DNA of 64,000 nt from Salinisphaeraceae bacterium (lineage in GTDB: Bacteria > Pseudomonadota > Gammaproteobacteria > Nevskiales > Salinisphaeraceae): contig NYTH01000057.1 in assembly GCA_002683405.1 (NCBI GenBank), forward strand, positions 62,001 to 126,000, read 5' to 3'. Positions 18,510 through 32,689 of this stretch are shown piece by piece. Each line of letters opens with the position of its first letter. The first letter of the stretch is position 1. Below the pieces are notes generated by a model. That model worked only from the letters and a program-made list of their open reading frames with translations, was not told where the DNA came from and searched no databases. The translations under genes were made by a program, and so were the position numbers.

Positions 18510-19784
18510 TCAGCGCAATAGACTGCCAGCCTCGGCCGCCACGCGCGAAGGCTTGAAGTTCTGCTCGTTGGTCAAAAGGCCGAACAGACGATCGTACTGG
18601 CCGGCGCGATCGGCCTCGCTCACGGCGGCGAGCGCCTGCAGCGCCAGAAACAGCTGTTCGGCATCGGCGTAGTCCCGGAAATAGCCCTCGCTCGCGGTTT
18701 GCAGCAGGGCGCGCCGCACGGCAGCCCGTTCGCTGGCGGACAGCGGCCGGCTGGCCACGACGGCCTGCGCCCGGGTCAGCGTGTCGCGCAGGTCGGCGCT
18801 GCGATTCTTGAACCGCGCGACCGATTGCGAGGTGCTGCGATGCAGTGTGCGGTTCTGCTGACTAATGCGGTCGGCCAGCGCCGCGTCGCGCAGGCCGGCC
18901 ACCACGGCGAGCGTGCGTATGGCGTAATCATTTGGGCGGATGCTGCCGGCCGGCGTCAGCCATTTTTCGCCGGACGTTCGGCGCACCGTGGTGTCCATCG
19001 GCCGGTGGCAGGCGTGGCAGTCGAACAGGCCCAGCTCGGGGGTGAGCGAGTGACCGTCCAGATGCGCCTGCAGCATGTCCATGTAGTCCACTGCGGCTGC
19101 GGCAATACCCGCGGCCCAGCGATCCGCGCCGTTGGTGATCCCCTTGCGCTGCGCGTAGTCGGCGTCCTCGCTGTGGTGCACCGGCATGTTGGTCAGCCAG
19201 GTGTCCAGCTCGAAACGCAGCCGCGGATGGCCGGCCGCCATGATCTCGTGAGTGACCAGGCGCTGTTTGTCCCCGACGTGACAGGACTGGCAGATCTGCG
19301 CCTGAACGCGCGGGTTTTCGCTGGGTGTCAGCCCGAGCGCGATATTCTCGGCGTGGCTGGCGTCGGGGCCGTAGTGCGCATCGATGTAGCCGGAGGCGCT
19401 GCCGTGGCAGGCCTCGCAGCCCACGCCGTCTCTCAGCTGGAAGCGGGGGCCGCGCTGCGCCTCGGGTACGTAATCGCTGTGGCAGACCAGGCACTCGGGC
19501 GCCCGGGCGGCATCCGCAATGCCCATGTTGGCGGCAATGCGCTTCGACCAGTCGCCCTCAAGCGTGCGGTAGGCCTGAGCGTGGCGATCGTACTTGCTCC
19601 ACAGGAAATACTCGTTGAGCTGCGCGTACGAATTGTTGGCGGGCGAGACGCGGCCGTGACAGGTGCTGGACGCGCAGGACGCCACGCCCAGCCGCTGCGC
19701 TTCGTCCGCTGCGCCCGCCGGGCCGCAACTCGCCAGGACAATCAGGCCGGCCCCAAGCAGCCGGGACAGTGAATGACGATTCAT
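18510..19784 (-). CDS. Multiheme c-type cytochrome (four CxxCH plus one CX4CH)
   Basis: This is a 424-residue protein. The N-terminus has a hydrophobic segment with a possible lipobox (LASC, cysteine 20) or a Sec cleavage site after AGA. Heme motifs are CASSTCH (residues 37-43, four residues between the cysteines) and the CxxCH motifs CLVCH, CEACH, CQSCH and CHACH up to residue 260. The C-terminal 160 residues are helical and carry no heme motif. The look is that of cytochrome c554-like proteins. The gene overlaps the upstream LVIVD cytochrome gene by 4 bp. It probably works as a periplasmic or outer-membrane electron carrier for that complex. Confidence 0.85.
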   Translation of the reverse strand: MNRHSLSRLLGAGLIVLASCGPAGAADEAQRLGVASCASSTCHGRVSPANNSYAQLNEYFLWSKYDRHAQAYRTLEGDWSKRIAANMGIADAARAPECLVCHSDYVPEAQRGPRFQLRDGVGCEACHGSASGYIDAHYGPDASHAENIALGLTPSENPRVQAQICQSCHVGDKQRLVTHEIMAAGHPRLRFELDTWLTNMPVHHSEDADYAQRKGITNGADRWAAGIAAAAVDYMDMLQAHLDGHSLTPELGLFDCHACHRPMDTTVRRTSGEKWLTPAGSIRPNDYAIRTLAVVAGLRDAALADRISQQNRTLHRSTSQSVARFKNRSADLRDTLTRAQAVVASRPLSASERAAVRRALLQTASEGYFRDYADAEQLFLALQALAAVSEADRAGQYDRLFGLLTNEQNFKPSRVAAEAGSLLR

Positions 19785-30088: not shown

Positions 30089-32689
30089 TCAGAGGTCTTC
30101 CACCAGGTCGGCAAAGTCAGCCGGACTGAGTCGGACGGCCGCCCCGGTGGGGCAGGCCTGTACGCAGGCCGGACCGGCCTTTCGGTCCTTGCAGGCATCG
30201 CACTTCACGGCCTTCTTGCCCGCCGCCTTGGCCTTCTTGCTGGGCTGCGCTTTTGCGTCCTCCCCCGGCCCGTGGCCACGGCCGGTCAGCAGCCATTGCA
30301 GCAGACCCGGTTTGGGCGGGGCCTGGTATTCCATACGGATCACGTCGTAGGGACAGTTCGTCTCGCAGTTGCCGCAACCAATGCAGCTGTCATCGATGAA
30401 GACTTCACCGCTGGGCTTGCGATGAATCGCGTTGGGCGGGCACTCCTTCATGCAGTGCGGCTGCTCACAGTGACGGCAGGCGATGGGCAGGTTGATGTGG
30501 GCAAAGCGCGCACCGGCCTTGCGGTTCAGGCGAGAAATGCCGTTGTGGGTTTCGGCACAGGCGATTTCGCAGTTGTCGCAGCCCACGCAGAGATTTTCGT
30601 CGATCACCAGCGCATCGGTGGCCTCGCCCAGTCCCCGGCCGAGCAGAAAGCTGATCACGTCGCTGGCCTCCGGCACCGATTCCATGCGGGAGGCATGCAG
30701 CAGCTGGTCCCGCGTGTCTGCCTGCAGCGCGGGCACCGAATCGGGAGAGCGCTTGAGCAGTTCGAGAAATTCGGCGCGCTTGATGGCGATGACTTCCACT
30801 CGTACCGCCGCGCGGGCGGTCTCGCGACGTACCGCGTCACCCATCAGCGCAAGCTGGCCGAAAAGCTCGCCGGACTGGGGATGCCCCACCGCGATGCTGC
30901 GGCCGTTTTCCCGGTAGGTGAGGGCGACAGTGCCGCTTCTGATCAGGTATAAACAGTCGCCGCTATCGCCTTGTTCATAAATGACTTCTCCGCGATTGAA
31001 ATGCCGGGTCTCCACGCGGCGGGCGATGTCGCGCAGCGCTGTATAGCTCAGCGAGGGCGCGAAGCACTGCTGCAGGGTGCGCTGCAGAAAGACGGTTTCG
31101 ATACCGGTGGCCACTTCACCGTTGGCGGCCATCAGCTTGAGCATGGTGCGGCGCGGTGTGGCAATGAGTATGGTGTCGGGCGCGACGACAGCGTCCCCCA
31201 GCCGCGGCCGCCCCGACAGCAGACTCATTTCGCCGAAGAACTGGCCTGGCTGCAGCCGGGTTTCCGGGCCGCCGGGGCTCTTCAGCGTGACTTCGCCTTC
31301 CACGATCGTGTAGAAGGTCGTGCTGTATTCCCCGTGGCGATACACCGCTTCGCCTGCGCGCAGGATACCGGTCAGCGCCGGCTCCTCGATGTCGCGCCAC
31401 TGCTTTGGCTTCATGCCGGTCTCGTGGCGCTTGCGGTCTTCGTTCCGCCGGCTGTGCTCAATGTCGTCCAGCCGCTGCGCGCGCAGCGTCCGCGCCTGCT
31501 TTTCCAGTCCGGTATACGCCGCGCGGCCGTCCACCGCGTAAAGAATGTCGCTTTCCAGAATGAGTTCGCGGAAGGCCAGCGCGTTCATCCGCGCGAACAT
31601 GGGCACACGCTGCTGGTAGAGTGCCAGCACCTCGTCGACGTCGGCTTCGTAGGGCAGCAGGCCGAACTTGACCTGCAGCAGCGGGTGCTCGACCGGCTTG
31701 ACCGCCTTGCCGTGGATAAAATCCACGACGTCCTGACCTTGGTTCATGGCCTGCTTGATCAGCGGATACCCGGCCAGCGCGCCGATGACGTGAAGCCCCG
31801 CCACGTTGCACTGGTATTGTCCGTCGAGTTCCGGCAGCGCTTCGGCGGATGCGTTGGGCAGCGCAATGCCGCAATCTTCCAGAAAGCCGCGCGGTGGAAT
31901 TGATCCGAGCCGGGCGATGATCCGGTGGCAGGGCAGGGTTTCCTCGCCATCCGGCGTATCCAGAATGACGGACCCGGCCTGACCGGCGGCGGTCGGCAGT
32001 TGCAGCGCTTTCACCTGACTCTGATAGCGGCAGGTCAGCGGCGTGGCCGGATCGTTGATGGCCGCCAGGATGCCGTCCAGGTTGCCCTGCTTGGCGCGGC
32101 TGAACTCGTTCTTGCGGTTGACGATGGTGACGCGATTCTGGCGCGTCAGGCCGAGCGCGTTCTCGATTGCCGCATCACCGGCGCCCACGACCAGAATGTC
32201 CTCGTCGGCGTATTCGTCGGGGTCATCCAGCTGGTACTGCACGAAGGCCGAATCGTCGCCTGCGACGCCCAGCCGGCGCGGGTTGCCCTGCGTGCCGATG
32301 GACAGAATGACGTGCTCGGCGGTCACGGTTTCGCCGCCGGCCAGGTGAATGGTGAAGTTGCCGCGCGTGCCTTCAATGCGGTTCACGGTAGCGCCCGTGC
32401 GCATGTTCACGCCGATGGCCTTCAGGCCCTGCGCCCAGTCATCCAGAATGACTTCCCGGGTGCCTGCCTCGAAATCCATTGGACTGCGCAGATCCAGATA
32501 GCCAGGCTCGTCCATGACGTGCTTGCCTTTCTGGTAGCGCTGGATCGTGTTGGCGTGCGCCGCAGTGCCTTCCAGCAGCACGTGCGTCGGCTGGCTGGCG
32601 GCATTCTCCCGATCGTATTCAGCGGCGCGCGCGGCAGCGCTCAGGCCGGCCGGGCCTGCCCCAAGTACCGCAATATGAAAATCAGCCAC
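30089..32689 (-). CDS. FAD/NAD(P) oxidoreductase fused to two cNMP-binding domains and a four-cluster ferredoxin
   Basis: The protein has 866 residues if it starts at the GTG at 32689, preceded by a G-rich Shine-Dalgarno. Residues 1-330 are a YpdA/thioredoxin-reductase-like flavoprotein with GAGPAG at 10-15 and a second nucleotide motif, VVGAGDAA, near 165. Two cyclic-nucleotide-binding domains follow (about 440-550 and 560-680, each with GEMSLL- or GQLALM-type motifs). The C-terminus has 16 cysteines in four [4Fe-4S] motifs, for example CVGCDNCEIAC and CIGCGNCETNC with a following CP. Such ferredoxins resemble DmsB/NrfC subunits. It has no signal peptide, so it is cytoplasmic and could feed NAD(P)H electrons to the next gene product. 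It is the first gene of the operon. Confidence 0.85.
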   Translation of the reverse strand: MADFHIAVLGAGPAGLSAAARAAEYDRENAASQPTHVLLEGTAAHANTIQRYQKGKHVMDEPGYLDLRSPMDFEAGTREVILDDWAQGLKAIGVNMRTGATVNRIEGTRGNFTIHLAGGETVTAEHVILSIGTQGNPRRLGVAGDDSAFVQYQLDDPDEYADEDILVVGAGDAAIENALGLTRQNRVTIVNRKNEFSRAKQGNLDGILAAINDPATPLTCRYQSQVKALQLPTAAGQAGSVILDTPDGEETLPCHRIIARLGSIPPRGFLEDCGIALPNASAEALPELDGQYQCNVAGLHVIGALAGYPLIKQAMNQGQDVVDFIHGKAVKPVEHPLLQVKFGLLPYEADVDEVLALYQQRVPMFARMNALAFRELILESDILYAVDGRAAYTGLEKQARTLRAQRLDDIEHSRRNEDRKRHETGMKPKQWRDIEEPALTGILRAGEAVYRHGEYSTTFYTIVEGEVTLKSPGGPETRLQPGQFFGEMSLLSGRPRLGDAVVAPDTILIATPRRTMLKLMAANGEVATGIETVFLQRTLQQCFAPSLSYTALRDIARRVETRHFNRGEVIYEQGDSGDCLYLIRSGTVALTYRENGRSIAVGHPQSGELFGQLALMGDAVRRETARAAVRVEVIAIKRAEFLELLKRSPDSVPALQADTRDQLLHASRMESVPEASDVISFLLGRGLGEATDALVIDENLCVGCDNCEIACAETHNGISRLNRKAGARFAHINLPIACRHCEQPHCMKECPPNAIHRKPSGEVFIDDSCIGCGNCETNCPYDVIRMEYQAPPKPGLLQWLLTGRGHGPGEDAKAQPSKKAKAAGKKAVKCDACKDRKAGPACVQACPTGAAVRLSPADFADLVEDL

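What the first reader, a model, noticed from the sequence alone, without database searches (positions are those of the whole stretch)
18510..32689. Seven-gene candidate trans-envelope electron conduit
The operon couples a cytoplasmic flavo/Fe-S protein (four clusters), a membrane protein with paired histidines, an inner-membrane decaheme, a heme-binding-like lipoprotein, an outer-membrane barrel, a decaheme propeller cytochrome and a smaller multiheme cytochrome, with gaps of a few bases or overlaps throughout. In total 24 CxxCH motifs plus one CX4CH are visible. I recognise the parts but not this arrangement as MtrCAB, PioAB or Cyc2. Seen directly: domains, order and spacing. Inference: electron flow and external partner.
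Basis: partly seen in the sequence, partly recalled or inferred. Interest (0 to 1): 0.92.

Follow-up and report, generated by a model that had tools for sequence, protein, structure and literature searches.

The report
Regulated multiheme electron-transfer gene cluster
This is a real and surprisingly common seven-gene bacterial machine that appears to carry electrons from the cell's NADPH pool out across the inner membrane into about 25 heme groups, under control of a signalling nucleotide; its outer-membrane pore looks more like a small-molecule channel than the sheath of an electrical wire.

Summary
In detail: seven tightly packed genes (g1-g7, 32689-18510, minus strand), 24 CxxCH plus one CX4CH. 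The set is conserved: in 68 of 76 fetched stretches holding g1-g6 they are colinear on one strand, and heme counts hardly vary (10, 10, 4+1). In 274 class-level genomes, 12 have a strong g6 match and all 12 also have g2, g4 and g7. The inner half (g1-g2-g3) plus g7 fits the published description of 'PCC4' clusters (He 2017), but the outer half (g4 HbpS-like lipoprotein, g5 barrel, g6 ExtM-related decaheme with LVIVD propeller) does not, so it is a sister variant, not a member. The barrel models as 18 strands (AlgE/OprD type), a solute-porin size. And g1 carries an invariant cyclic-nucleotide site and an NADPH-type motif, with an FHA-like domain on g3; kinase, phosphatase, cyclase, phosphodiesterase and glutamate-dehydrogenase genes recur nearby in a minority of loci. 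Best reading: a cNMP-gated NADPH-to-periplasm electron chain feeding a periplasmic multiheme reductase whose substrate comes through its own porin. Direction, acceptor, gating and outer-membrane crossing are inferred.

The parts
30089..32689 (-). g1: 866-aa cytoplasmic NAD(P)H/FAD oxidoreductase (YpdA/TrxR-like) + two cNMP-binding domains + four [4Fe-4S] motifs (PF13247 among them)
   Evidence: Pfam; 16/16 cluster cysteines invariant in 102 aligned; cNMP residues E487 and R496 in 102 of 102, second domain R621 in 100 and E at 612 in 76 of 102 (Q in the window); NADPH-type NR(R/K)xEFxR
29217..30086 (-). g2: 289-aa inner-membrane protein, five hydrophobic segments, two WX3HX13H (two b-type hemes inferred) and SGXXG
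   Evidence: 118 of 118 orthologues have both WX3HX13H, 116 of 118 SGXXG; no Pfam/NCBIfam hit for the window copy; a homologue weakly matches cytochrome b561 PF01292, E=2.9e-4, under cut-off
27498..29213 (-). g3: 571-aa decaheme c cytochrome, FHA-like N-terminal domain (cytoplasmic by inference), one TM at 142-158
   Evidence: (FHA in 28 of 42 members at E<=0.01; window copy only E=0.023)
25504..27495 (-). g4: 663-aa lipoprotein with repeated HbpS/GlcG-like domains
   Evidence: PF03928 E=5.8e-24, three stretches; lipobox pattern in 83 of 100
23709..25523 (-). g5: 604-aa outer-membrane beta-barrel, 18 long strands, AlgE/OprD-like
   Evidence: AF2 pLDDT 74.7, pTM 0.73; AlgE Z=26.7, rmsd 3.0 over 360 residues
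19781..23707 (-). g6: 1308-aa secreted decaheme cytochrome (ExtM-related heme part) with C-terminal LVIVD beta-propeller
   Evidence: 74 of 74 full-length homologues have 10 CxxCH
18510..19784 (-). g7: 424-aa cytochrome c554-like protein, 4 CxxCH + 1 CX4CH, pentaheme by conservation
   Evidence: PF13435 E=4.9e-10; CX4CH His in 25 of 25 and five other conserved His
17692..18489 (-). PP2C-type Ser/Thr phosphatase, 20 bases after g7, same strand
   Evidence: NF033484 168 bits, under its cut-off of 230; gap
16769..17677 (-). double-FHA protein, 14 bases after the phosphatase
   Evidence: FHA-type matches at two places, all under cut-off
12435..16652 (-). ccmF-ccmG-ccmH-ccmI cytochrome c maturation genes, same strand (116-base gap before ccmF)
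   Evidence: names recalled from known Ccm proteins, not run against a family library
8755..10530 (+). Ser/Thr protein kinase, the only PF00069 match in this genome
10607..12406 (+). Sel1 + caspase (Peptidase_C14) protein next to the kinase
32736..32763 (-). promoter-like TTGACT-16-TATAGT upstream of g1 (consensus match only)
   Evidence: 3 such sites in the region where shuffles give 1.7

Best explanation
A second-messenger-gated electron export chain. NADPH reduces the FAD of cytoplasmic g1; electrons pass through its four [4Fe-4S] clusters to the two b hemes of g2 in the inner membrane (directly or with quinone), then to the ten c hemes of g3, which is held in the membrane by one helix and reaches into the cytoplasm with an FHA-like domain that may dock g1. 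g7 (five hemes) relays to g6 (ten hemes, ExtM-related), a periplasmic or outer-membrane-associated reductase. g5, an 18-strand porin, lets a small, probably anionic acceptor in, and the lipoprotein g4 holds or senses a cofactor. Cyclic nucleotide bound to g1 switches the chain. Shown: genes, domains, heme and cluster ligands, conservation, co-occurrence, invariance of the cNMP site, barrel class of the model. Inferred: direction, acceptor, NADPH rather than NADH, docking, gating effect.
For: Conserved set: 68 of 76 stretches with g1-g6 are colinear on one strand; 12 of 274 class genomes have a strong g6 match and all 12 have g2, g4, g7. cNMP site: E487 and R496 in 102 of 102, second domain R621 in 100 of 102. 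NADPH-type motif: R192 in 100 of 102, R198 in 94; NADP-specific glutamate dehydrogenase near the cluster in 12 of 84 flanked loci. Cyclase genes in 6 and SpdA/CpdA-like phosphodiesterases (under the family cut-offs) in 9 of 84. Heme ligation: invariant motif and further His. Barrel of solute-porin class with an invariant Arg-rich stretch 248-284. g6 heme part related to ExtM of the selenite/tellurite operon and mostly without lipobox. g6 strongly conserved, 59-73% identity to 44 homologues, which suits an enzyme better than a mere wire (inference).
Against: Most loci (68 of 84, and 70 of 84) show no phospho-signalling gene and no cNMP gene, respectively, in the short flanks fetched. The heme part of g6 models poorly (mean pLDDT 63.9), so no active site is seen; with 13 invariant His beyond the motifs all ten hemes may be bis-His, which suits transfer more than catalysis. 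18 strands rests on one model from a 45-sequence alignment. Nothing here tests direction; many hosts are aerobes (recalled). The NADPH-type motif begins with N, not the H of thioredoxin reductase. In the window copy the second cNMP domain has Q for E and the FHA domain is weak (E=0.023).
Confidence: 0.45

Rival explanations
1. One reading: a true trans-envelope conduit. g5 sheathes a cytochrome (g6 or g7), g6 faces outside, and electrons leave the cell to minerals, electrodes or partners.
For: Porin and multiheme genes are adjacent and conserved; inner-membrane module as described for PCC4, itself proposed as a conduit; one carrier is a biocathode MAG by its record title (L116).
Against: 18-strand solute-porin fold; no lipobox in 75 of 78 g6; the Arg-rich segment conserved in g5 suits a selective pore (inference); no MtrA/MtrC family match above cut-off.
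Confidence: 0.27
2. Inward flow: the chain takes electrons from an oxidisable donor (Fe(II), Mn(II), cathode or a small reductant) and makes NADPH.
For: PCC3/PCC4 were proposed in iron oxidisers; flavoproteins and cytochromes can run both ways (established knowledge).
Against: Autotrophy of the carriers was not examined; making NADPH from high-potential donors through b hemes without a clear coupling site is uphill (inference); carriers include Sphingobium and Lysobacter strains, thought of as heterotrophs (lifestyle recalled).
Confidence: 0.13
3. A detoxification or redox-sensing system rather than respiration: the chain disposes of electrons or oxyanions (as the Ext selenite/tellurite operon) and reports redox state to the kinase/FHA/caspase genes.
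For: ExtM relation; kinase, PP2C, FHA and caspase genes near; HbpS-like lipoprotein (HbpS as heme/redox sensor is recalled).
Against: ExtM match is far below cut-off (55 of 800 bits); signalling genes are found in a minority of loci; g5 has no NCBIfam hit.
Confidence: 0.15

Closest known systems
PCC4 clusters, Subgroup II (He et al. 2017, PMC5566968)
   Same: Fe-S gene with pfam13247 upstream of an inner-membrane protein with five TM, SGXXG and two WX3HX13H; a decaheme and a tetraheme cytochrome; a porin.
   Different: Here the outer part is g4 (HbpS-like lipoprotein), g5 and a 1308-aa decaheme-propeller g6; no 5-CxxCH cytochrome. The porin-like protein of G150 does not resemble g5 (hhalign probability 0.7%). 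G150 has four cytochromes where PCC4 is said to have three. No sequence from the paper itself was compared.
ExtHIJKLMNOPQS of Geobacter (selenite/tellurite; PMC5877670)
   Same: Porin plus several multiheme cytochromes plus a b-type cytochrome; g6 heme part is related to ExtM.
   Different: No rhodanese or Rieske gene among the seven; g6 55 bits against an 800-bit cut-off; the Ext gene list in the passages read names no flavin/cNMP protein like g1.
PCC3 (He 2017; PMC10734462)
   Same: Inner-membrane protein motifs; porin with periplasmic cytochrome.
   Different: PCC3 cytochromes have a median of 34 and 21 hemes and porins up to 42 strands.
MtrCAB / MtoAB / PioAB
   Same: Decaheme cytochromes beside an outer-membrane barrel.
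   Different: g3 30.9 bits to DmsE/MtrA (cut-off 192.2), g6 no MtrC match, 18 strands modelled rather than 26 (26 recalled).
'Forkhead-associated protein', 10 hemes, in 27 of 87 Gallionellaceae iron oxidisers (PMC10734462, Table 1)
   Same: FHA domain with ten heme motifs, as g3.
   Different: A table line there; no operon or role given in the passages I saw; sequences not compared.
Uet of Tenderiales (named in PMC10734462)
   Same: Multiheme cytochromes, porin and NHL-repeat proteins together.
   Different: NHL proteins are separate, 11-heme and triheme cytochromes; the primary paper was not held.

Membership tests
PCC4 | Fe-S gene with pfam13247 directly upstream of the inner-membrane protein (Subgroup II) | tested here: met
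   PF13247 in g1, 44.8 bits over cut-off 26.2; g1-g2 gap 2 bases
PCC4 | Inner-membrane protein: five TM, SGXXG, two WX3HX13H | tested here: met
PCC4 | Porin gene in the cluster | tested here: met
   AF2 barrel; homology to the PCC4 porins of the paper not tested
PCC4 | Three periplasmic cytochromes with 4, 5 and 10 heme sites | tested here: not met
   10, 10 and 4 (+1 CX4CH)
PCC4 | No extracellular cytochrome | tested here: inconclusive
   no lipobox in 75 of 78 g6; location not measured
MtrCAB/MtoAB/PioAB | MtrA/DmsE-family decaheme | tested here: not met
   g3 30.9 and g7 21 bits against 192.2
MtrCAB/MtoAB/PioAB | MtrC/OmcA-family surface decaheme (TIGR03507) | tested here: not met
   no match of g6 up to E=0.1; the model is in the library
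MtrCAB/MtoAB/PioAB | MtrB/PioB-type large barrel | tested here: inconclusive
   18 strands modelled, no NCBIfam hit
PCC3 | Very heme-rich cytochromes and very large porin | tested here: not met
   10 hemes each; 18 strands modelled
Ext (selenite/tellurite) | ExtM equivalog | tested here: not met
   55 bits, cut-off 800
Cyc2 | Single heme fused to a porin | tested here: not met
   g5 has no heme motif
Uet | UetA-J gene set | not testable with these tools
   primary paper not held; no Uet sequence at hand
cNMP-regulated proteins | Binding of cyclic nucleotide | not testable with these tools
   domains and conserved binding residues only

The most novel reading that the evidence does not exclude
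A widespread, unnamed respiratory or detoxifying machine in which cytoplasmic NADPH is coupled, through a flavo-Fe-S protein gated by a cyclic nucleotide and an FHA-tethered decaheme, to a periplasmic decaheme-propeller reductase with its own substrate porin: signal-gated electron export, a control principle that I know of for no multiheme chain.
Probability: 0.3. Interest if true: 0.85.

Novelty: new variant of a known kind. Interest (0 to 1): 0.62.

Why it matters
If the reading is right, many common, apparently aerobic bacteria own a 25-heme electron outlet from the NADPH pool that can be switched by a second messenger, which would be a handle on how cells control multiheme electron flow. 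It also makes the PCC4 proposal directly testable, since an inner-membrane half of that type is seen here with at least two different outer halves.

Tried and rejected
Fur control: a perfect AATGATNNTCATT palindrome lies at 32799-32811 before g1, the only full match in the window, but only 1 of 95 upstream regions (the window's own) has a full match and 3 of 95 a ten-of-eleven match (shuffle mean 0.3), so it is not a conserved feature. Methanotroph PCC (PMC13322032): passages show an MtrA/MtrB-type cluster, not this one. PDB sequence search: nothing for g5 (E<=1), g6 or g7 (E<=0.1); weak HbpS-like hits for g4; two weak, unrelated-looking hits for g2. Fold search with the g6 fragment (residues 85-1235) showed beta-propellers of many unrelated proteins in its top 50; the heme part is poorly modelled, so no conclusion is drawn for it. 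The FHA domain as a phosphothreonine switch: 28 of 42 g3 hit FHA at E<=0.01 (42 = window + 41 of the 70 usable copies), but the window copy reaches only E=0.023, so I keep it as a docking idea. Other samples: g5 alignment = window + 44 of 58 copies, g6 fragment alignment = window + 44 of 46; g2 alignment A1 = 18 of 40. Signalling neighbours are a minority: among 84 distinct loci with at least 3 kb of flank (610 kb in all), kinase 15, GDH 12, phosphodiesterase 9, caspase 8, cyclase 6, PP2C 5, CHASE2 3, FHA 2; any of kinase/PP2C/FHA in 16, any of cyclase/CHASE2/phosphodiesterase in 14. Related loci are in that count and were not weighted. For background I searched kinases in 24 genomes, a set chosen partly because of their hits: 0 to 51 per genome, so in kinase-rich genomes a nearby kinase means little; in the window's genome there is exactly one. 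ccm genes in the flanks: ccmF in 2, ccmG and ccmH in 3 each, and ccmI-like (TPR) in 10 other loci, so the ccm neighbourhood is mostly local. MtrB is not among the 50 rows shown. Clusters of G721 (L122) and G272 (L080) end at a contig end, so their lack of g6 is not taken as a true absence; G324 has only an 81-bit C-terminal g6 fragment.

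
Full report
WHAT IS THERE. Seven genes lie head to tail on the minus strand between 32689 and 18510, with gaps of 2, 3, 2, -20, 1 and -4 bases. A promoter-like TTGACT-16-TATAGT sits at 32763-32736 and a hairpin with a T run at 32928-32904, before the operon (consensus matches only, in numbers near those of shuffles). g1 (866 aa): pyridine-nucleotide oxidoreductase, two cNMP-binding domains and 4Fe-4S domains including PF13247. g2 (289 aa): five hydrophobic segments, two WX3HX13H and SGXXG. 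g3 (571 aa): one TM at 142-158, ten CxxCH after it, an FHA-like part before it. g4 (663 aa): HbpS-like domains. g5 (604 aa): barrel. g6 (1308 aa): ten CxxCH then LVIVD repeats. g7 (424 aa): c554-like, four CxxCH plus CASSTCH. Shuffled proteins never gave more than 2 CxxCH.

IT IS A CONSERVED SYSTEM. A search with g6 in 61 genomes near the window found long g6 matches in 16 of 44 other members of the order and in none of the 16 other members of the family (of the 18 tallied, one is the window's own genome and one, G020, matches only weakly in the propeller part). In an even sample of 274 class genomes the strong hits are separated from the weak ones by a wide gap: g4 in 13, g6 in 12, g2 in 15, g7 in 14. 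Twelve genomes have all four (in G097 g6 is a part, 703 bits); G272 has g2 and g4 on a contig that ends in g5; G087 and G150 have g2 and g7 only. Weaker matches below the gap were not counted: 3 genomes for g4, 52 for g6 (mostly short matches to propeller or ExtM-like proteins), 31 for g2 and 1 for g7. Of 15 genomes searched again because no complete g6 lay beside the inner-membrane module in the fetched stretch, or the contig ended, 8 have a complete g6 and 7 do not. After removal of identical copies, 124 stretches, all chosen because they held one of these genes: g1-g2 adjacent in order in 108 of 115, g2-g3 in 114 of 118, g3-g4 in 78 of 97, g4-g5 in 89 of 93, g5-g6 in 82 of 84, g6-g7 in 37 of 51; all six colinear in 68 of 76. 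Among 47 stretches with g1, g6 and g7, g7 sits right after g6 in 34, divergent from g1 in 9 and elsewhere in 4. On Sphingobium herbicidovorans plasmid pMSHV, g1-g2-g3 and g7-g4-g5-g6 are two separate, opposite runs of one region. In a tree of 77 g6 proteins the window groups with Zhongshania (support 1.0) and Pseudoteredinibacter (0.91); the 43-member clade around it holds none of the 16 from its own order. With its absence from the 16 family members this suggests transfer.

HEMES AND CLUSTERS ARE REAL. g3: 107 of 107 have ten heme motifs; g6: 74 of 74 have ten; g7: 21 of 22 have 4 + CX4CH. Beyond the motifs, ten histidines of g3, thirteen of g6 and five of g7 are conserved, enough for bis-histidine ligation of all hemes; so g7 is probably pentaheme and the total is 25 c hemes plus two b hemes (inference). 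In g1, all 16 cluster cysteines are conserved in 102 sequences. The first cNMP domain keeps its glutamate (E487) and arginine (R496) in 102 of 102; the second keeps the arginine (R621) in 100 and the glutamate in 76, with Q in 23, the window among them. That these residues bind the nucleotide phosphate is established for CRP-type domains (recalled). The second Rossmann stretch carries NR(R/K)xEFxR, like the HRRxxxR of NADPH-dependent thioredoxin reductases (motif recalled). A g2 homologue weakly matches cytochrome b561.

THE BARREL. The g5 model (pLDDT 74.7, pTM 0.73; the first 84 residues nearly all under 50) has 18 long strands. Foldseek ranks the alginate exporter AlgE first, then OprD/Occ porins and MOMP, and the second aligner gives AlgE Z 26.7, rmsd 3.0 over 360 residues. 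A shared fold does not prove function, but it puts g5 in the size class of solute channels; MtrB has 26 strands (recalled). Segment 248-284 holds many invariant residues, among them R253, R264, R276 and R281, as one expects of an anion-lined constriction (inference). g6 has a signal peptide but no lipobox in 75 of 78; g4 has one in 83 of 100 (a simple pattern test).

RELATION TO KNOWN SYSTEMS. He et al. 2017 (PMC5566968: abstract, passages and section 16 seen; supplement not readable) describe PCC4: a porin, cytochromes with 4, 5 and 10 hemes, an inner-membrane protein with SGXXG and two WX3HX13H, and in Subgroup II a pfam13247 gene upstream of it. g1, g2, g3 and g7 fit; g6 and the absence of a 5-heme protein do not. 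In genome G150 (L191, L200) I find g7-g1-g2-g3 homologues beside a 5-heme cytochrome, a 542-aa protein taken as porin-like only from its place and C-terminal residue (no Pfam hit), and a second tetraheme: by description close to a PCC4 cluster, though with four cytochromes rather than three. So PCC4 and the present operon probably share an inner half and differ in the outer half. The G150 porin-like protein shows no similarity to g5. g6 is related to ExtM of the Geobacter ext operon, whose porin ExtI is needed for selenite and tellurite reduction (PMC5877670, passages; PMC6148476, passages). An FHA-decaheme is listed, without a role, in Gallionellaceae (PMC10734462, passages and Table 1). Searches for LVIVD, GlcG, forkhead-associated or cyclic nucleotide-binding with cytochrome, multiheme or porin terms listed 0, 1, 0, 2, 1 and 0 papers, none describing this set by its listing or the passages seen; PCC4 returned only the 2017 paper. 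Of 13 papers listed for porin-cytochrome clusters in Gammaproteobacteria I looked into passages of three. Most subscription papers are not in that library.

SIGNALLING CONTEXT. In the window, a PP2C phosphatase and a double-FHA protein follow g7 on the same strand, then ccmFGHI; a Ser/Thr kinase and a Sel1-caspase protein lie at 8755-12406 on the other strand. That kinase is the only PF00069 match in the genome. Elsewhere, 84 loci with flank show kinase 15, GDH 12, SpdA/CpdA-like phosphodiesterase 9, caspase 8, cyclase 6, PP2C 5. Of a cluster of 7 loci with the phosphodiesterase, 6 have g3 as nearest gene on the same strand, median distance 27 bases; the carriers are genomes of another class than the window's, one of them named (Sphingobium). 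One neighbour is a CHASE2 cyclase. These are minorities and related loci are counted separately, but together with the invariant cNMP site they make control by a cyclic nucleotide the simplest reading.

HOW IT MOST LIKELY WORKS. NADPH (perhaps from glutamate oxidation by the neighbouring GDH) -> FAD -> four [4Fe-4S] (g1) -> two b hemes (g2) -> ten c hemes (g3) -> five (g7) -> ten (g6) -> acceptor. cNMP on g1 opens or closes the entry. g5 admits the acceptor and g4 serves at the outer membrane. Only the parts and their conservation are shown; the order of electron flow follows from topology; acceptor, direction and gating are inferred. Confidence 0.45 against 0.27 for a true outer-membrane conduit.

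Noticed in passing
window 32799-32811: Perfect Fur-box-like palindrome AATGATTCTCATT about 110 bases before g1, the only full match in the window; not conserved in other carriers.
   Followed up: yes
window 8755-12406: The genome's only Ser/Thr kinase next to a Sel1-caspase (C14) protein; kinase and caspase genes occur together in the flanks of 8 of 84 loci, among them Parahaliea and Marinobacter.
   Followed up: partly
L159:3890-5260 and 11 other loci: NADP-specific glutamate dehydrogenase gene close to the cluster in genomes of more than one class; reason unknown.
   Followed up: partly
L109, L111: Two-partner-secretion genes (ShlB/FhaC family, one with a very large neighbour) beside the cluster on Sphingobium plasmid pMSHV, and a very long repetitive ORF upstream of g1 in Pseudoteredinibacter.
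   Followed up: no
L196-L199: Free-standing cytochromes of about 750-810 aa with 10-12 hemes, closer to ExtM than g6 is, in four other Gammaproteobacteria looked at; no obvious porin directly beside them by eye.
   Followed up: partly
L142, L174: MAG records titled Klebsiella pneumoniae and Bordetella parapertussis carry the cluster; the species labels look doubtful for such bins.
   Followed up: no
L096, L098: g1 and g2 fused into one 1118-1123 aa protein with a 9 CxxCH + 1 CX4CH g3, and no g6 found in the genome; He 2017 notes that the Fe-S and IMP genes of Oceanospirillum beijerinckii were annotated as one.
   Followed up: partly
window 16-3075: Long protein with repeated short Asn/Gly-rich units and a C-terminal membrane segment, probably a beta-helix surface protein (by eye).
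   Followed up: no
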